The translations under genes and the position numbers were made by a program. DNA of 64,000 nucleotides, taken from NCBI RefSeq assembly GCF_018476525.1, contig NZ_JAHCST010000009.1, forward strand, positions 124,001 to 188,000, given 5' to 3'. The notes under the pieces were generated by a model, which worked only from the letters and a program-made list of their open reading frames with translations, was not told the origin of the DNA and did no database searches. Below, in pieces: positions 3-17,285 of this stretch. The stretch comes from Acrocarpospora catenulata. GTDB taxonomy: Bacteria; Actinomycetota; Actinomycetes; Streptosporangiales; Streptosporangiaceae. Within the stretch, counting starts at the first letter, position 1; every line of letters starts with the position of its first letter.

Positions 3-3000
3 CGGGCGTACGACGCCCGGTTCAGCGCGGCCAGCGCCAAGGTGCTCGCCGACCTCGACCGGCTGGACGCCTACCCGAGCCGCCGTTTCATTCCCCTCGA
101 CAAGGTCGCGCAGGCCATCGCCGCCGAAGTCCTCCTGGCCACGCCGCCGGGCGGAACCGTCCAGCACGTGACCGGGAATCTGCACGACTTCGTCACCGAC
201 ATCGGCGCGCTGGAACTGCCGTTCTTTCCCAACCCCCGGTACGACGACTCCGACGAGTTCGCCGCACTGCGCGCCACCGCGGACGGCGTGGTCGGCGGCC
301 ACCTCGACGAGGTGCTCGACCCCGCCCACTGGCGCAACCGTTCCGCCGGGTACGGCGGAGCCACCCCCCACGCCCGGCCAGGCTGTTTCACCGGCCGCTC
401 ACGCCAGCGCCGGGAACTGGTCCGCTGGCTGGACACCCCGGCGGGCAACCCCGCGCTGCGGGTGGTGACCGGCGCGCCCGGTTCGGGGAAATCCGCCCTG
501 CTCGGCATCCTCGTCTGCGCCGCCCACCCACAACTGTCCCAGCAGACCACGGACCTGTGGAGCACCGTCTTCCTGTCCCGCGCGCCGTCGGTCAACCACG
601 ATCTGGCCGCGCTGCACGTACGCCGGCACGACCTGTCCACCGTCCTGCTCTCCCTGATCAGGCAACTCGACCTGGACCTGGGTGACAGGACCGAACTCGG
701 CTCTTCCGCCCAGCAGGCGGCCAGGGTCCGCGCCGCGATCAGGAATCGCGCGCAGCAGCCGGTGATCATCCTGGACGCCCTGGACGAGGCGTCCGATCCC
801 CAGACCCTGCTCGACGCCCTGCTCCTGCCGCTCCTGGCAGCCCGCCGTCCCGACGGCCTGCCCGCCGCCCGCCTGCTGATCGGCGTACGCCATGGGACCC
901 TCGCCCAGCCGCTCGTGGACCACGCGCGCGGCGGGGGCGGACTGCTCGATCTGGACGAGGTCCCGATCAAGGAGCTCAGAAAAGATCTCCGGGAGTACGT
1001 CGGCTCGTTGTTGCGGCTCAGCGGCCGTTATCAGGACGTCGCCCACCAAGCGGCACGGGCGGCGTTCGCCAGAGCCCTCGCCCATACGCTGACGCTGCCG
1101 GCGTCCCAGGAATGGGGCGCGTTCCTCGTCGCGGCCGTCTACAGTCATCACTTCATCTCCGGACAGAACACCGCGATCACCAACCCGGCGGAGGCGGCCC
1201 TGATCGGGCGCGCCATTCCCCGCACGCTGGCCGAGGTGCTGGATCTGGACCTCGGCCATCACCAAACCCAGCCGTGGCTGCGGCCTGTTCTGGTGGCACT
1301 CGCCCACGCCCAAGGTCAGGGCATGCCGCTCTCGGTACTTGAACGGCTGGCCCCGTTGTGGCGCCCCAACCGTGGCGGCGTCGGGTCGCGGGACATGCGG
1401 CAGGCGTTGGACGCGGCCAGGTTCTATCTGCGGCAGGTACCGGACCGGGATGGCACGACCCTTTATCGCGTGTTCCATCAGGGGCTCGCCGACCACCTGC
1501 GCGACCTGCCGGGCGACGGTCCCGCCGATCCCGCCGCGGCCGTCTTCGAGGCTCTGCTCGATCCGATCAGCTGGCCGGGCGGGCGCTCATGGGTGAGCGC
1601 GGTGCCGTACCTGCTGCGGCACGCGGCCGAGCACGCACCGGACCTTGACCAGCTCACCGAGCTGATCACCGATCCGGGTCTTCTGGTCCACGCCGACCCA
1701 CAGCCGCTGTCGGCCGCCCTCCGCCGCCTCGACCACGTGGCCCCGGTCACGGCCGAGCTTCAGCGGGCGGTCTACCGGACCTCCGCCCACCTGCATCGAA
1801 CGCTCGGACCGGCCGCGCGCCGCGACATCCTCACCGTTGACGCGGCCCGATGGGGGGCTGGCGAGCTGGCGCGGGACGTCCAGAGTGTCCCGGTCTCATA
1901 TGATTCGCAACCCGCGTGGTGGCCCGCCTGGGCAACCGGCTCTGCGGTCAGCGTCGCCCATCGTGGAACGATTCCCGGCCTGGGCTCCCGGGTGAACGCC
2001 TTGGCCGTGTCCGAGGAGATCGCGTTCACCGGCGACGACGACGGCCTGATTCGTCTGTGGGACCTGCTCGACCAGGTGGCCGTGGGCGATCCGCTCGTCG
2101 GGCACCATGGACCGGTGCTGGGTCTGGCGATCTCGGAGCTGGCCAGGCGTCCTACGCTGATCAGTGGCGGTGCCGACGGAACCATCCGGCTGTGGGACAT
2201 CCAGGACCGTGTGCCGGTCGGGCCGCCCATCGTGACGTACGACGAGAACTCCCGCATTCGAGCGGCGATCCACGGCCTGGCCTGCACGATCGTGGACGGC
2301 ACCCGCATCGCGGTGGCCTCCTGCGACGACGGTGTGGCCCGAATCGTGGACCTCGACGCGAAAACCGTCATCCGGAAGCTCGAGAGTGGCAGGCCCGGCG
2401 GTCTGCGTGAGGTCAGGGCAGCCGAGGTGGGCGGCGTCCCGATGGCGGTCACCACGGCGGCGGAGGGGACGGTGACGGCCTGGGACCTCACCACCTACGC
2501 CGTGGCGCGGGAGCTTCCCGGCGGGTTCGGCGGCAGGGTACGGGCGATGGCGACGCTCAAGCTGGCCGGCACGCCCCACACCGTCATCGCCACCCGCGAC
2601 GAGGTCAGGCTGTGGGACCTCATGGACGGCCAGGTGACGGACTTCCCGGCGGGCGACCCCGGCGTCCTCCGCGGACTCACCGCCATCGATCTGCCCGGAA
2701 ATCGGGCCGTCGTGGCCGGAACAGGCGACGACGGAGTCGTGTGGGCCGCGACCCCGGGTGACACGCCTCGGTCACTGGGAGTTCATCCGGTGGGGGCGGT
2801 GGCCGTGGAGGCCACCCGTGTCGCCGGGAGATCGGTCGCCGTCACCGTTGACGGGAACGCCACGATTCGCCTGTGGGACCTGGCCGAATCCGGTCCGGTC
2901 GGCACGCCCGTCCACGGCCACGCCGAAGCCGTGACCGCCGTCTCCGTCGGCCCGGATGTCGTGACGGCGGACACGAGCGGCGGCATCCGCCGGTGGAATC

Positions 3001-3842
3001 CGGTGGACGGAGCCCCGAAAACTCCGCTGCTTGCCGGCCATGGCCGGCCCGTCTCGGGCGTGGACGGCGTCATGATCGGAGGCCGTCACGTCACCGTGAC
3101 CGCGGGGGAGGACGGCGTACTCGGCCTGTGGGCAGAGGACGACCGCGATACGTCGTGGTGGTCCTCCGGGACGTCCCCGCTCACCGCCCTGTCCTGCACG
3201 CTCGTGGGCAACCGCCCGGCGGCCGTCACCGGCGGCGCCGACGGCGCCGTCCGCCTCTGGTTTCTGGACGACCCCTTCGTCGTCGGCACCCGCATCGGCC
3301 GCCACACCGGCCCTGTCCGTGCCGTACGCTGCGTCGACGTGAACCGGAGGCCCATGGCCGTGACGACAGGGGACGACGGTCACATCCAGCTGTGGGACCT
3401 GGCCACCGCCTCTCTCCGCGGGGGTCGTATGACCGGCCATTCGGCCTCCGTACGAGCCGTGACCTGCGCCAACGTGGATACCCGCCCAATCGCGGTGACC
3501 ACCTCCGACGACGGTACCGCCCAGGCGTGGGACCTCACCCAGCTGACCGAGATCGCCCCACTCCGGCACCTGTCCCGAAGCCCGTTACGAGCCGTCTGCG
3601 CCACCACGATCGGCGTACGCCCCCATCTCATCGCCGCGATCGACGGCAACGTGGTGAGCATGTACGACCTGACCGACTGGATTGACGGGGCGAGATCGGA
3701 CTCGTCCTCGCTGAGTTCGTTCCACCTGCCCGAAGAGGTGACCGCCATGGCCACCGACGACACCGGTCGGCTGGGCGTGGCCTTCGGGCGCGACGTGGCC
3801 CTGCTCCGGATCACCGACCCTAGGATGGCCGGTCATGGATGA
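3..3842 (+). CDS. STAND-type NTPase with C-terminal WD40 propellers (5' end outside window)
   Basis: The frame is open to the left edge, so the true start and any N-terminal effector domain lie outside the window. Counting from the GTG at 42 there are 1,266 residues. A Walker A loop (GAPGSGKS) is at about 144-151 and a Walker B strand (VIILDALDE) at about 241-249, followed by a helical region to about 640. From about 645 to the end are roughly 14 WD40-like repeats, many ending in D-G-x-x-x-L-W-D, enough for two seven-bladed propellers. This is the STAND plan: nucleotide switch plus repeat-based sensor. In bacteria such proteins act as regulators or anti-phage sensors. The gene overlaps the downstream SIR2-like gene by 8 bases, so the two are probably translated together. 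The NTPase-WD40 assignment is firm; the missing N-terminus could be a protease, a death-like adaptor or something else. Confidence 0.88.
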   Translation, partial: RAYDARFSAASAKVLADLDRLDAYPSRRFIPLDKVAQAIAAEVLLATPPGGTVQHVTGNLHDFVTDIGALELPFFPNPRYDDSDEFAALRATADGVVGGHLDEVLDPAHWRNRSAGYGGATPHARPGCFTGRSRQRRELVRWLDTPAGNPALRVVTGAPGSGKSALLGILVCAAHPQLSQQTTDLWSTVFLSRAPSVNHDLAALHVRRHDLSTVLLSLIRQLDLDLGDRTELGSSAQQAARVRAAIRNRAQQPVIILDALDEASDPQTLLDALLLPLLAARRPDGLPAARLLIGVRHGTLAQPLVDHARGGGGLLDLDEVPIKELRKDLREYVGSLLRLSGRYQDVAHQAARAAFARALAHTLTLPASQEWGAFLVAAVYSHHFISGQNTAITNPAEAALIGRAIPRTLAEVLDLDLGHHQTQPWLRPVLVALAHAQGQGMPLSVLERLAPLWRPNRGGVGSRDMRQALDAARFYLRQVPDRDGTTLYRVFHQGLADHLRDLPGDGPADPAAAVFEALLDPISWPGGRSWVSAVPYLLRHAAEHAPDLDQLTELITDPGLLVHADPQPLSAALRRLDHVAPVTAELQRAVYRTSAHLHRTLGPAARRDILTVDAARWGAGELARDVQSVPVSYDSQPAWWPAWATGSAVSVAHRGTIPGLGSRVNALAVSEEIAFTGDDDGLIRLWDLLDQVAVGDPLVGHHGPVLGLAISELARRPTLISGGADGTIRLWDIQDRVPVGPPIVTYDENSRIRAAIHGLACTIVDGTRIAVASCDDGVARIVDLDAKTVIRKLESGRPGGLREVRAAEVGGVPMAVTTAAEGTVTAWDLTTYAVARELPGGFGGRVRAMATLKLAGTPHTVIATRDEVRLWDLMDGQVTDFPAGDPGVLRGLTAIDLPGNRAVVAGTGDDGVVWAATPGDTPRSLGVHPVGAVAVEATRVAGRSVAVTVDGNATIRLWDLAESGPVGTPVHGHAEAVTAVSVGPDVVTADTSGGIRRWNPVDGAPKTPLLAGHGRPVSGVDGVMIGGRHVTVTAGEDGVLGLWAEDDRDTSWWSSGTSPLTALSCTLVGNRPAAVTGGADGAVRLWFLDDPFVVGTRIGRHTGPVRAVRCVDVNRRPMAVTTGDDGHIQLWDLATASLRGGRMTGHSASVRAVTCANVDTRPIAVTTSDDGTAQAWDLTQLTEIAPLRHLSRSPLRAVCATTIGVRPHLIAAIDGNVVSMYDLTDWIDGARSDSSSLSSFHLPEEVTAMATDDTGRLGVAFGRDVALLRITDPRMAGHG

Positions 3843-4710
3843 GCCGGATTGGGAGCGCCTCGTCTGGCAGCTTCGCAACGGTCAATGCACTCCGTTTGTG
3901 GGCGGCGGAGCGGCGGCGGGCCTGCTCCCGACAGGAGCAGAGCTGAGCCACCTCTTCGCCGAGCGCTACGATTACCCCTTCAGCGACCGCCACGATTTAC
4001 CACGAGTAATCGAATACGCGGAATCGGTGGTGCGCGACCGGGTCTACTTGCGGGAAGAGATCAGCAGGCTGTTCAGCTCCTCCCTGGTGCTGCAGAACGA
4101 CGCCTCGCGAGTCCATGGAACAATCGCACGCCTGCCCGTTCCCGTTTACATCACCACCAACTTCGACGATCTGCTGGCCAGGGCATTGCGTGAGCAGGGC
4201 AAGTCGCCACGGGTGTTGACGTTCACCTGGTGGGCAGGACCGAACGAACGCCAGCCGGACCTGCTCAGCGACTGGGTGCCCAGCGTGGATGAGCCCATCG
4301 TCTACCACCTGCATGGCCACGTGGCCGATCCCGGCTCGCTTGTACTGACCGAGAACGACTACCTGACGTACCTGATCAACCTCACGGAGCAGGCGGCGGC
4401 GAACGGCCGCCCATCGTTACCGATCCCGGTGCTCAACGCCATAACGAGGCAACCCCTCATGTTCATCGGCTACAGCCTGCAGGACTGGACGTTCCGGGTG
4501 CTGTTCCAGGGCCTGCTCCGGTCGGTCCCTGATGTCAACCGTCGGCGGCACGTGGCCTGCATGCTTTTCCCGTACCTCGCGGACACCGGGAAAATAGAGG
4601 AGGCCGCCCGTTATCTGCGCCACTCGCTCGAGAGCTGGCTCATCTCCGTCTACTTCGGAACAACCTCCGAATTCTGTGACGAACTGCGACGCAGGCTGGA
4701 AATGGGATGA
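3835..4710 (+). CDS. SIR2-like domain protein (putative NADase effector)
   Basis: This 291-residue protein has the layout of SIR2-like proteins of bacterial defence systems: a glycine-rich nucleotide loop (FVGGGAAAG, 21-29), a T-T-N-F-D-D motif (107-112), an H-L-H-G motif with the candidate catalytic histidine at 160, and a late F-I-G-Y-S-L-Q-D stretch. The loop lacks the serine of the classical GAGxS motif. Known relatives degrade or bind NAD when triggered by a sensor; that role is inferred here. Its ATG lies inside the end of the STAND gene, suggesting translational coupling. No second effector follows: the next gene is on the other strand and unrelated. Its base composition is visibly less GC-rich than its neighbours and it contains two rare TTA leucine codons, which hints at acquisition by transfer. 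Confidence 0.85.
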   Translation: MDEPDWERLVWQLRNGQCTPFVGGGAAAGLLPTGAELSHLFAERYDYPFSDRHDLPRVIEYAESVVRDRVYLREEISRLFSSSLVLQNDASRVHGTIARLPVPVYITTNFDDLLARALREQGKSPRVLTFTWWAGPNERQPDLLSDWVPSVDEPIVYHLHGHVADPGSLVLTENDYLTYLINLTEQAAANGRPSLPIPVLNAITRQPLMFIGYSLQDWTFRVLFQGLLRSVPDVNRRRHVACMLFPYLADTGKIEEAARYLRHSLESWLISVYFGTTSEFCDELRRRLEMG

Positions 4711-9987: not shown

Positions 9988-10873
9988 CGCCGACGTGGCG
10001 GCGGCGTGCGTCGAGCCGCGGACGCTCACTGCGGCGGTGGCCGCCGCGCTCACCGACCTCGGGGCGGGACTGGCCACCCAGCTGCCCAAGCAGACCCTGC
10101 CCACCGGCGACGGCGGCTTCTTCCTCACCGTGGCCGGCGCGGTGCCCGCACTCGACCTGGCCACCAGCAAGTGGGCCTCCTACCGGCCAGGACGCGCCGG
10201 GTCCCCGGGGGTGTCCACCTCGGCCATCCTGGTCACCCGGTACGGCGACGCCGCGAACCTGGCGTTCGTCGAGGGGATGCTGGCCACCTGGCTGCGTACC
10301 GCCGCCACGGCGGCCGCGGCCGCCCGCGCCCTGTGCGCGGAACCGCCCGCCCGGCTGGCCCTGGTCGGCTTCGGGCCGACCAACCAGTGGACGCTCCGCT
10401 ACCTGGCGGCCGTGCTGCCCCCGCGCGAGGTCCGGGTGGCCGTACGGTCCGCCGCCTCGGCGGCCCGGGCGGAGGCGGCACGCGGAATGCTGCCGGAAGG
10501 CTGCGCGCTCTTCGTCACCACCGACGTGGCGGCGGCGGTACGCGGCGCCGACCTCGCCGTGTCGGCGACCGGCGCGCGGACGGCGCTGGCCGATCTCGGC
10601 ACGCTGGCCGAGCGCGGGGTCGCGGTGAGCCTGGACGGCAGCCTGACCTGGCGCACCGGCGCGCGGGACCTGGTGGTGACCGACCGGGCCGCCGACGCCG
10701 GCACCGGACGCGACGCGACGGCGATCTTCAGGCCGGGTCAGGGGAAGGACCGCCGGGTGCTGGCCGACCTCGCCGGCTCGGCGGTGACGGACGTGGCGCT
10801 GGCCGCCGTCTTGCTGGGGGTCGCGCGTAAGGGCGCGCCACCGCAGGTCGTCCGAGGGGAGGCACGCCCGTGA
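9980..10873 (+). CDS. Ornithine cyclodeaminase/mu-crystallin family protein
   Basis: About 297 residues, overlapping the regulator by eight bases. The Rossmann motif L-V-G-F-G-P-T-N-Q-W lies in the middle and T-S-K-W-A-S-Y upstream carries the lysine usually involved in substrate binding. Members of this family reduce or deaminate amino acids or imines (ornithine cyclodeaminase, alanine dehydrogenase, ketimine reductase) with NAD(P). The glycine loop is G-F-G-P-T-N rather than the common GxGxQA, so its chemistry may differ. An NAD(P)-dependent step on a transported amino acid or on a product of the hydantoinase is a reasonable inference. A GTG 18 bases upstream is an alternative start. Confidence 0.78.
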   Translation: MTDADVAAACVEPRTLTAAVAAALTDLGAGLATQLPKQTLPTGDGGFFLTVAGAVPALDLATSKWASYRPGRAGSPGVSTSAILVTRYGDAANLAFVEGMLATWLRTAATAAAAARALCAEPPARLALVGFGPTNQWTLRYLAAVLPPREVRVAVRSAASAARAEAARGMLPEGCALFVTTDVAAAVRGADLAVSATGARTALADLGTLAERGVAVSLDGSLTWRTGARDLVVTDRAADAGTGRDATAIFRPGQGKDRRVLADLAGSAVTDVALAAVLLGVARKGAPPQVVRGEARP

Positions 10874-11967
10874 TCGCCGTACCCGCCGCCGAAAGGTCTC
10901 ACCAGGTCGGTCCCGCCGCGGCACTGGCCGTGGCCGCCGCGTTCAGCGCCTTCCCCAGCCCCTTCTACCGGGACTACGCGGCGCTGCTCGGCGGTGGGGC
11001 GTGGCCGACCGCACTACTGTTCAGCGTGCACGGCGCGACGGTCGCCGGGGTGATGGGCCTGGTCGGGACGGGACGGCTCGGCAGCTTCATCGCCCGCGCC
11101 GCGCCTGGGCGGGTACTCGCCGTGGCACTGGTCCTCGACGCCGCCGCCGGGCTGCTCTACCTGGCCCCGCCTGACCTGGCCGTGCTCGTGACGGCACGGA
11201 TCGGGACGGGGATCGCCCTCGGCGTCGTCTCCCCCGTGGCCACCTCGGCGCTCACCGCGCAAGCTCGCGGCGCGTCGATCGCCACGGCCTGCCTGCTGGG
11301 CGGGGTTGGAGCCGGCGCGTGCTGCGCCGGGCTGGCCGCGAGCCTCGGGGACCGGAGCGCGGCGTTCGGCACCGGGATCGCGCTGCTCGTGACCACCGCA
11401 CTGGTGGTGGGCCGCGACCGCCCCGCCGCGCGGGCGCCGCTGCCACCTCCCGGCGAAAGCGGACGCCACCAGGACGCGCGACGGAGAAGCAGCCTGGACA
11501 CGTCGTCGGCACGCGACCCCGGCGCGACTCCGCTCGCGGCCTGCGTGGTGGCGTTCGTCGCCAACGGTGTGCTCGGCCTGTTCACCTCGGTGCTCCCCGG
11601 GGAGGTCGCCGCGGTCTCCGGCCGAGGCGACGACCCGCTGATCACCGGCGCCGTCGTGGCGCTGGTGCTGCTGAGCGCCACGGCCTGCCGGCTGCCGGCC
11701 CGGCCGGTGGGCCCGCTGCCGACCGGCGCGCTGGTCGTGGCAGGCGTCGGCGGGCTGGCGGCCGGATGGACCGCAGGCGTGCTCTGGCTCGCCCTGCTCG
11801 GCGCGGCACTGCTGGGCGCCGCCGCCGGGCTGGGCTACGCGGGGGCGGTCCGGGCCGCCTCGACCGGCCGGACCGGGGCGGCGCGGCTGACCGCGCTGGC
11901 CAGGGTCCAGTTGGGCGGGCAACTCGGCCTGGTCCTGCCCGTGCTGATCTACGCATCCGTCAGATAA
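10870..11967 (+). CDS. MFS-type membrane transporter
   Basis: 365 residues in about ten to twelve hydrophobic segments rich in Ala, Leu, Val and Gly, with a positively charged central loop (about 195-215, rich in Arg and His) as expected between the two halves of a major facilitator. The GTG start overlaps the previous stop (GTGA). Coming after an ABC importer in the same operon, it may export a product or take up a second substrate. No substrate motif is recognisable. Confidence 0.75.
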   Translation: MIAVPAAERSHQVGPAAALAVAAAFSAFPSPFYRDYAALLGGGAWPTALLFSVHGATVAGVMGLVGTGRLGSFIARAAPGRVLAVALVLDAAAGLLYLAPPDLAVLVTARIGTGIALGVVSPVATSALTAQARGASIATACLLGGVGAGACCAGLAASLGDRSAAFGTGIALLVTTALVVGRDRPAARAPLPPPGESGRHQDARRRSSLDTSSARDPGATPLAACVVAFVANGVLGLFTSVLPGEVAAVSGRGDDPLITGAVVALVLLSATACRLPARPVGPLPTGALVVAGVGGLAAGWTAGVLWLALLGAALLGAAAGLGYAGAVRAASTGRTGAARLTALARVQLGGQLGLVLPVLIYASVR

Positions 11968-16622: not shown

Positions 16623-17285
16623 ATGACCGACATCGTGACCACCGAGCGCACCGGCTGGACCCCCGCGGGCACCACGTTGGTTCCCCCGCGTGGCAGGCTG
16701 GCGCTCAAACTGCGCGCCGGACAGACCCTGACCGTCGTCGACGTACGCGGCCAGCAGGTGATGGACCTGATCGCCGCCATGGTGGACGACCCGGACGAGC
16801 GCCTGTCCTGCATGTTCTCCCGAGTGAGTTCCGGCAGATGGGACCTGAGGGAGGGCCACAAGGTCTACTCGACCAAGTGCGCCCCCATGTTCCGGGTGGT
16901 CCACGACGACAACGGCATCCACAACATGACCGGCGGTTACTGCTCGCAGTGGTCCAACGCCATCCGGTACGGCACCGGCCAGACCTTCACCTGCTACGAC
17001 AACCTGACCGCCGACTGGACGGACCTCGGACTCGACGTCCAGAAGATCTCCCCCGACATGTGCATCTCCCTGTTCATGAACATCGCCCACCACCCGGACG
17101 GGCGCATGGAGATCAAGGAGCCGACCACCTCACCCGGCGACCGAATCGTGCTGGAGGCCCTCGCCGACGTCTACGTCGGCCTGTCCAACTGCCCCGAGGA
17201 GCACAATCCGTGCAATGCCTACCAGCTGACGGAGATGGAGGTGACCGTGGGCTCGGAACCACCGGCGGGCGCCTTTACAAAGTAG
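16623..17285 (+). CDS. DUF1989 (urea carboxylase-associated) family protein
   Basis: 220 residues. P-P-R-G-R, G-Q-Q-V-M-D-L-I-A, S-T-K-C-A-P-M, Y-C-S-Q-W-S-N-A-I-R-Y-G and C-P-E-E-H-N-P-C-N are typical of the DUF1989 family, found beside urea carboxylases and in nitrogen-scavenging operons. Members are thought to act on small guanidine or urea-like compounds, but the biochemistry is mostly unsettled. It is the last gene of the operon; the 43-base gap after HyuB contains a GGGAGACC ribosome site. It strengthens the view that the operon handles a nitrogen-rich cyclic compound. Confidence 0.85.
   Translation: MTDIVTTERTGWTPAGTTLVPPRGRLALKLRAGQTLTVVDVRGQQVMDLIAAMVDDPDERLSCMFSRVSSGRWDLREGHKVYSTKCAPMFRVVHDDNGIHNMTGGYCSQWSNAIRYGTGQTFTCYDNLTADWTDLGLDVQKISPDMCISLFMNIAHHPDGRMEIKEPTTSPGDRIVLEALADVYVGLSNCPEEHNPCNAYQLTEMEVTVGSEPPAGAFTK

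What the first reader, a model, noticed from the sequence alone, without database searches (positions are those of the whole stretch)
3..4710. STAND-WD40 giant paired with a separate SIR2-like gene: candidate conflict/defence system
Seen directly: a P-loop, a Walker B strand, about 14 WD40 repeats in one frame, and an 8-base overlap with a gene carrying a glycine loop, T-T-N-F-D-D and H-L-H-G motifs. Known: SIR2 domains deplete NAD in anti-phage systems and are often fused to STAND sensors. Here the effector is a separate, translationally coupled polypeptide, and the sensor is WD40-based with another domain upstream. Inferred: the WD40 propellers sense an infection signal and the NTPase activates the SIR2 protein. 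The SIR2 gene's lower GC content and TTA codons suggest transfer. Interest lies in the architecture and coupling, since sensor-effector split pairs of this type appear poorly described.
Basis: partly seen in the sequence, partly recalled or inferred. Interest (0 to 1): 0.8.

Follow-up and report, generated by a model that had tools for sequence, protein, structure and literature searches.

The report
Caspase–STAND–WD40 operon with added SIR2
A soil actinomycete carries an apoptosome-like bacterial protein (caspase-type protease, molecular switch and WD40 sensor) flanked by a lipase-like gene and a predicted NAD-destroying SIR2 gene; the first two are a recurrent pair, and the third looks like an effector borrowed from a different conflict-type system.

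Summary
The giant is 1432 aa and starts 456 bases before the window: caspase-fold domain (His78/Cys122), STAND NTPase and about 14 WD40 repeats. Three bases upstream is a lipase-fold α/β-hydrolase (ABH). The SIR2 gene overlaps the giant's stop by 8 nt and keeps the ThsA/KomC-type Asn and His.

The conserved partner is ABH, not SIR2. Of 93 caspase–STAND loci, 78 have ABH and 2 have SIR2. The SIR2 family normally sits in FxSxx-COOH peptide loci, next to a different STAND protein: 64 of 68 genes in 60 loci. Yet it recurs in a second genus, with the same ATGGATGA overlap and the nearest STAND relative. I read it as a rare lineage-specific recruitment.

Best mechanism (inferred): WD40 sensing oligomerises the STAND hub, the caspase unlocks the lipase, SIR2 adds NAD depletion. 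Metacaspase–NACHT–WD40 and caspase+ABH pairs are in print (PMC3501461, PMC7159879). The SIR2 recruitment was not found in my searches.

The parts
3..3842 (+). In-window part of the caspase-STAND-WD40 hub gene (full gene C171:123544-127842, 1432 aa, starting 456 bases left of the window). Directly before it, also outside the window at C171:122668-123540, lies the 290-aa ABH gene, first gene of the operon.
   Evidence: Hub. ABH: ORF L005:10668-11540; Abhydrolase_6 weak, 0.0073, below cut-off; candidate triad S176 88/88, D236 86/88, H269 87/88; fold of a family member: B. subtilis lipase Z 13.9.
3..263 (+). In-window end (residues 154-240) of the caspase-fold domain, residues 1-240; catalytic His78 and Cys122 lie left of the window
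   Evidence: Peptidase_C14 0.002, below cut-off. H and DxC invariant in 43 relatives. Predicted fold of relative L136: MALT1 Z 20.7, 199 aligned, rmsd 2.9.
462..503 (+). Walker A / P-loop VVTGAPGSGKSALL, residues 307-320
   Evidence: position; near-invariant in alignments
759..791 (+). Walker B PVIILDALDEA, residues 406-416
   Evidence: position; near-invariant in alignments
1992..3815 (+). about 14 WD40 repeats (residues 817-1424, marked by eye), consistent with two seven-bladed propellers
3835..3842 (+). 8-nt overlap ATGGATGA: SIR2 start / hub's stop
   Evidence: identical in L091, second genus
3835..4710 (+). SIR2-type predicted NADase, 291 aa; Asn109 at 4159-4161 and His160 at 4312-4314
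   Evidence: SIR2_2 4.3e-27; aligned with ThsA and KomC segments; N109 69/70, H160 69/70

Best explanation
This is a three-gene operon: lipase-like ABH, caspase-STAND-WD40 hub, SIR2 NADase. It is most likely a suicide (abortive-infection or programmed-death) system. Shown: the domains, intact catalytic residues, gene order, coupling, the recurrent ABH-caspase pairing, and SIR2's kinship with SIR2 proteins of FxSxx-COOH loci. Inferred: (1) the WD40 propellers bind an infection or damage signal; (2) the STAND domain oligomerises with ATP, as in APAF-1; (3) clustered caspase domains become active and cut after a basic residue, a target being the ABH cap segment that carries an Arg motif found in caspase-linked ABHs; (4) the freed lipase attacks membrane lipids; (5) SIR2, made in tandem with the hub and perhaps docked on it, is switched on and destroys NAD. 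SIR2 is an add-on taken from the FxSxx/nSTAND1 system and kept in one lineage.
For: Full gene and ABH. Caspase fold and dyad. ABH triad and lipase fold. ABH in 78 of 93 unique caspase-STAND loci (77 within 6 kb of the caspase part, 60 on the same strand), against 0 of 20 control loci of 20 kb; the three proteobacterial loci in the set also have ABH, within 14, 35 and 240 bases. SIR2 residues aligned with ThsA/KomC. SIR2 home operon: 64 of 68 genes beside nSTAND1-TPR, 59 of 60 loci with FxSxx-TPR (names). Recurrence in G121 (L091): caspase-STAND-WD40 then SIR2, ABH convergent, same overlap letters. Nearest relatives in the hub tree. All three genes have lower GC3 than their neighbours. The left block shared with four other genomes of the genus stops at L005:10524-10529, and the right block, found in one of them, starts at 16784, i.e. 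just outside the trio. Arg116 of the window ABH: 59 of 65 linked ABHs against 5 of 20 unlinked; the QG before it 53/65 and 49/65 against 1/20 and 1/20. Caspase-activated effectors have a tested precedent, canu (PMC12799240, passages).
Against: No functional data: oligomerisation, cleavage, activation of SIR2 and phage specificity are all untested. SIR2 is absent from 91 of 93 relatives, so the hub does not need it. The SIR2 tree does not group the two caspase-linked SIR2s (9% of bootstrap trees); one origin is not rejected either (p-AU 0.31). The hub sister pairing has support of only 76. G121, the second case, is listed with contamination 8. 15 of 93 loci have no ABH in the DNA held, some of them on short contigs. 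The Arg motif may be shared ancestry of the linked ABHs rather than a cut site, and in the model the conserved Arg lies in a helix. The window copy sits among metabolic, regulatory and transport genes, and none of the 6 flanking genes read in frame hits PADLOC, so no defence island was seen next to it. PADLOC has no model that hits the hub or ABH at E<=1.
Confidence: 0.5

Rival explanations
1. The functional unit is only ABH plus caspase-STAND-WD40; SIR2 is a hitchhiker, a remnant of an FxSxx locus, with no role in this operon.
For: SIR2 in only 2 of 93 loci; its family lives in FxSxx loci; long end branches of both caspase-linked SIR2s.
Against: Catalytic residues intact in the window copy, and the TTN and HLHG segments are present in the L091 sequence; identical 8-nt overlap in two genera; no FxSxx profile hit at either locus; nearest hubs in the tree.
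Confidence: 0.25
2. SIR2 is the main effector and the caspase acts as its regulator (cuts or trims it, or is mainly a scaffold), as the first reader's sensor/effector view would have it.
For: Translational coupling; this SIR2 family is nearly always beside a STAND gene.
Against: The caspase-linked SIR2s are no longer than the FxSxx ones (about 290 aa), so no obvious gating insertion; 91 of 93 hubs do without SIR2.
Confidence: 0.12
3. The system is a developmental cell-death or stress switch of a filamentous actinomycete, not an anti-phage one; the lipase and NADase serve lysis or nutrient recycling.
For: 77 of the 80 best rows of a capped scan are actinomycetes; the locus stands among metabolic, regulatory and transport genes; PMC7159879 ties such systems to multicellular habit (passages).
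Against: Patchy distribution (17 of 341 family genomes and 6 of 394 class genomes at E<=1e-20), compositional difference, matches in 10 plasmid-collection records, two of which are over 5 Mb, and three proteobacterial loci with the same ABH pair fit a mobile conflict system better than a core developmental one.
Confidence: 0.2

Closest known systems
Metacaspase-NACHT-WD40 proteins (PMC3501461)
   Same: Same domain order; called 'widely distributed' in the passages read.
   Different: Those passages do not treat ABH or SIR2 neighbours; here both are coupled genes.
Caspase plus alpha/beta-hydrolase pairing of VMAP ternary systems (PMC7159879)
   Different: The hub here is a STAND-WD40 NTPase. 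A Streptomyces relative has a MoxR-like AAA gene nearby, with a bpMoxR hit below cut-off (L161).
canu caspase-nuclease and Avs/Hachiman protease-nuclease systems (PMC12799240)
   Same: A protease on the sensor side activates a separate pro-effector (passages).
   Different: The candidate effectors are a lipase-like ABH and a SIR2, not a metallo-beta-lactamase nuclease.
ThsA (Thoeris) and KomC (Kongming) SIR2 NADases
   Same: Among the best sequence matches of the window SIR2 in solved structures (1.9e-11 and 6.7e-8); KomC too is a stand-alone SIR2, activated through KomB (PMC12948488, passages).
   Different: No SLOG domain in the 291-aa protein; the neighbour is a STAND NTPase.
SIR2 + nSTAND1-TPR gene pair of FxSxx-COOH loci
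   Same: Same SIR2 family, also coupled in trans to a STAND gene.
   Different: There SIR2 lies upstream of an nSTAND1-TPR gene, with FxSxx-TPR and mostly FxsB; here it lies downstream of a caspase-STAND-WD40 gene.
Avs5 and DSR1/2 (architectures recalled, not fetched)
   Same: Large sensor protein with a SIR2 effector.
   Different: SIR2 is fused there, separate here. The window SIR2 hits the Dsr1 and Dsr2 models only weakly (0.025 and 0.064).

Membership tests
Caspase-like (C14) peptidase | caspase fold with His-Cys dyad | tested here: met
   H75, D121, C123 invariant in 43 relatives; predicted fold of relative L136, Z 20.7 to MALT1. The window's own domain: Pfam 0.002, below the curated cut-off; its H78 and C122 align with these columns.
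STAND / NACHT NTPase | Walker A, Walker B and STAND-type profile match | tested here: met
   NACHT 27.2 bits against cut-off 26.7, AAA_16, NPHP3_N; motifs. In a shorter cut nSTAND1 also passes (29.6 against 27.1).
SIR2-type NADase (ThsA/KomC-like) | SIR2_2 profile with catalytic Asn and His | tested here: met
   SIR2_2 4.3e-27; N109 and H160 aligned with ThsA/KomC and 69/70 conserved. NAD cleavage itself not tested.
Thoeris | ThsA with SLOG or other C-terminal sensor, plus ThsB | tested here: not met
   The 291-aa protein matches only the SIR2 part of the ThsA models and SIR2_2 is its only Pfam hit. ThsB was not searched for.
Avs (AVAST) | match of the STAND protein to a PADLOC Avs model | tested here: inconclusive
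   No PADLOC family at E<=1 for the 1432-aa protein; absence of a model hit does not exclude kinship.
Caspase+ABH conflict pairing (Kaur et al. 2020) | caspase-bearing core gene with a neighbouring ABH gene | tested here: met
   ABH 3 bp upstream; 78 of 93 loci.
VMAP / MoxR-vWA ternary system | VMAP-C, MoxR and vWA components | tested here: inconclusive
   No such Pfam family in the hub, SIR2, ABH or the 10 other neighbouring genes of the window copy that were scanned (2, 8; hub and SIR2); the rest of the window was not scanned.
FxSxx-COOH system | FxSxx-TPR and FxsB genes at the locus | tested here: not met
   No hit of either profile within L005 (19.5 kb) or L091 (20 kb); the SIR2 gene alone belongs to that set.
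EACC1-caspase two-gene system | NCBIfam caspase_w_EACC1 above cut-off, EACC1 gene 5' | tested here: not met
   No NCBIfam hit at E<=0.01 for the window protein; the L091 relative 30.8 bits against cut-off 140. An EACC1 gene was not searched for.

The most novel reading that the evidence does not exclude
A bacterial apoptosome with a layered kill: the WD40-sensed STAND wheel activates an Arg/Lys-specific caspase that unlocks a partner lipase by cutting its cap at the QG..T....R segment, and in one lineage the wheel has also taken over a SIR2 NADase from the FxSxx peptide system. SIR2 would then be an interchangeable cassette that different STAND wheels can dock in trans, moved between a peptide-linked and a WD40-sensed system.
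Probability: 0.25. Interest if true: 0.78.

Novelty: new variant of a known kind. Interest (0 to 1): 0.5.

Why it matters
Caspase-NACHT-WD40 proteins of bacteria have been known for years as possible relatives of the apoptosome's parts, but what their caspase cuts is mostly unknown. The frequent ABH gene (78 of 93 loci) names a concrete candidate substrate, with a candidate segment, that can be tested in a laboratory host. The SIR2 gene is a natural experiment: the same effector family is coupled in trans to two different STAND architectures, so comparing them could show what part of a STAND hub is needed to switch a SIR2 on.

Tried and rejected

SIR2 as a deacetylase sirtuin: the protein has only three cysteines (18, 242, 281), so no four-cysteine zinc site; its matches are ThsA/KomC.

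Recent transfer of SIR2 alone: not favoured, since all three genes share the odd GC3.

Clean empty site: not shown. In the four other genomes of the genus the conserved left block ends at the same place, but each continues with different genes, and the right block (one genome, L309) stands elsewhere. So it is a variable site, not a proven insertion.

Single origin of the two caspase-linked SIR2s: neither shown nor rejected.

ABH elsewhere: ABH matches 124 of 250 family genomes, far more than the hub. I looked at 20 ABH loci away from the hubs; many share neighbours of similar sizes, which suggests a chromosomal paralogue with its own surroundings, but those neighbours were not identified. One (L249) carries the linked-type motif without a hub beside it.

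More SIR2-hub pairs in the class: two scans of 394 genomes each; 6 have the hub and 20 have SIR2 at E<=1e-20, and only G000 has both. SIR2 was scanned in 250 of the family's 341 genomes, the hub in 341; the five hub loci new have no SIR2 by profile.

The SIR2 protein was not folded.

Papers: PMC7159879, PMC8195603, PMC12799240, PMC3501461, PMC12948488 and PMC13373217 were seen as passages only; the last gave nothing of use. All other papers were seen as listings with abstract starts. PMC8195603 does mention SIR2, caspase and alpha/beta-hydrolase as effector domains of related conflict systems, in other architectures. 'Not found in print' rests on listings in an open-access library; one search was swamped by yeast Sir2 (20 of 6,154 listed), one search listed 20 of 29, 12 of 25. 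Recalled, from no call: the MALT1 S1-pocket Asp two residues before the catalytic Cys (basis for 'Arg/Lys-specific'), ThsA catalytic numbering, APAF-1 analogy details, Avs5 and DSR architecture.

Counts and dropped rows: one search was given 106 caspase loci; 12 were dropped as duplicates, by equal contig lengths, leaving 94, of which 93 have the caspase profile and 94 the STAND profile. L139 and L165 overlap on one contig and were both kept. One search left out L213 (cut) and L247 (fused) and has 68 rows; one search counts all 68 SIR2 genes of 60 loci, those two included; its four misses are L125, L213, L227, L239. One search left out L089 (same gene as L136) and ABHs under 230 aa. Profiles were built here from loci that include the window's own genes. 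In one search one of ten proteins (window:7033-7888) was given in a wrong frame and does not count. G121 was taken as a Spongiactinospora, and the window's genus as Acrocarpospora, from equal contig lengths; this is inference.
Full report
WHAT IS THERE. The window is C171:124001-188000 of a 10.3-Mb genome. Its N-terminus, off the window, reads HVLSHGE and LLDLCYAG, the His and Cys segments of caspases. Pfam Peptidase_C14 matches this part at 0.002, under its cut-off, and 9 of 18 aligned members match at E<=0.01, best 1.6e-6. In 43 relatives the His and the Asp and Cys of DxC are invariant. The predicted fold of relative L136 (mean pLDDT 95) matches MALT1 (Z 20.7, 199 aligned, rmsd 2.9), with other caspases and metacaspases within about 1.3 of that. 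Next come the STAND NTPase and about 14 WD40 repeats.

THE OPERON. A 290-aa alpha/beta-hydrolase gene (ABH) ends 3 bases before the hub gene. Its Ser, Asp and His are conserved (88, 86 and 87 of 88 rows). A relative (mean pLDDT 91) folds like B. subtilis lipase (Z 13.9), with lysosomal phospholipase A2, LCAT and the Nir2 DDHD domain within 1 of it, so these are tied. The SIR2 gene starts inside the hub's stop (ATGGATGA). Its Asn109 and His160 align with the matching segments of ThsA and KomC and are kept in 69 of 70 rows. All three genes have GC3 0.80-0.85 against 0.91-0.98 for the other 13 genes called around them. The left block shared with four other genomes of the genus and the right block shared with one of them end just outside the trio. 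The flanking genes scanned are metabolic, regulatory or transport genes; the 6 of them read in frame against PADLOC have no hit.

WHO GOES WITH WHOM. In 341 genomes of the family 17 have the hub at E<=1e-20. The family loci and the best 80 loci of a capped scan of named genomes give 94 unique loci, 93 with caspase and STAND profiles. ABH is in 78 of the 93, within 6 kb in 77, on the same strand in 60; a Band 7 gene is in 4; SIR2 is in 2. None of 20 control loci has ABH. Three of the loci are from Proteobacteria (Pseudomonas, a Dongia MAG, Nitrosospira); all three have ABH within 240 bases. The order varies: ABH before the hub, after it, convergent, or between a split hub and its WD40 part. A partnership kept through such shuffling argues for joint function, and Kaur et al. 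2020 report the same pairing for caspases of VMAP systems (PMC7159879, passages).

WHERE SIR2 COMES FROM. Of 250 family genomes 56 have a SIR2 match. I examined 60 loci besides the window and L091: 59 carry the FxSxx-COOH system TPR gene and 46 the FxsB profile. Of 68 SIR2 genes, 64 are followed on the same strand by an nSTAND1-TPR gene, 51 with overlap or no gap (names). So this SIR2 family is a habitual partner, in trans, of a STAND protein, in another system. The window and L091 (G121, another genus) are the only two found with the caspase hub. Their hubs are nearest neighbours in the tree with support 76, their overlaps are letter-identical, and their SIR2s are not resolved as one clade though one origin is not rejected. 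Recruitment once, then drift, is the simplest reading. Near the L091 trio lie a kinase-like gene and a gene that matches PADLOC's candidate model SWIM_XIII at 5.6e-47, so that copy has a defence-candidate neighbour, which I did not see beside the window's.

MECHANISM. Inferred as in Best explanation. The one new lead is in ABH: caspase-linked copies share QG..T....R in the variable cap (Arg116: 59 of 65; QG 53/65 and 49/65), while 20 copies away from hubs mostly read GE.LTG (Arg in 5 of 20). Para- and metacaspases cut after Arg or Lys (recalled) and the DxC Asp is invariant here, so Arg116 is a testable cut site. Shared ancestry of linked ABHs explains the motif equally well without cleavage.

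VERDICT. The core (metacaspase-NACHT-WD40, PMC3501461; caspase with ABH, PMC7159879) is a known kind; the STAND-based caspase-ABH-SIR2 combination is a new variant. Interest 0.5.

Noticed in passing
L108-L127, L208-L247: SIR2 + nSTAND1-TPR, mostly overlapping, is an almost constant part of the FxSxx-COOH radical-SAM peptide loci examined in this family (64 of 68 SIR2 genes; 59 of 60 loci with FxSxx-TPR). A conflict-type module beside a peptide-modifying system; not found in the papers searched.
   Followed up: partly
L104, L105 (=L184), L158, L160, L163: The hub is split into a caspase-STAND gene and a WD40 gene with ABH between them, in Acrocarpospora, Streptomyces and Amycolatopsis.
   Followed up: no
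L139 and L165 (Actinoplanes sp. DH11, one contig): At least four caspase-STAND genes in tandem, each overlapping the next by 4 nt, with no ABH in those two loci.
   Followed up: no
L088, L096, L098, L295: A Band 7 (SPFH) family gene directly before the caspase-STAND gene; L096 and L295 have ABH in the locus as well.
   Followed up: partly
L138, L161: Other coupled neighbours of the hub: a DUF4407 protein (1.4e-77) and a MoxR-like AAA gene with a 983-aa protein that hits no Pfam family.
   Followed up: no
G000:C6 (L093), G000:C177 (L088), G000:C160 (L126): The window's genome has two more caspase-STAND loci, one with ABH overlapping its end, one with a Band 7 gene before it, and a typical FxSxx/SIR2 locus.
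   Followed up: partly
L091:11932-13620 and 10372-11355: Beside the second trio: a SWIM-domain protein matching PADLOC model SWIM_XIII (5.6e-47) and a kinase-like protein overlapping the hub's start.
   Followed up: no
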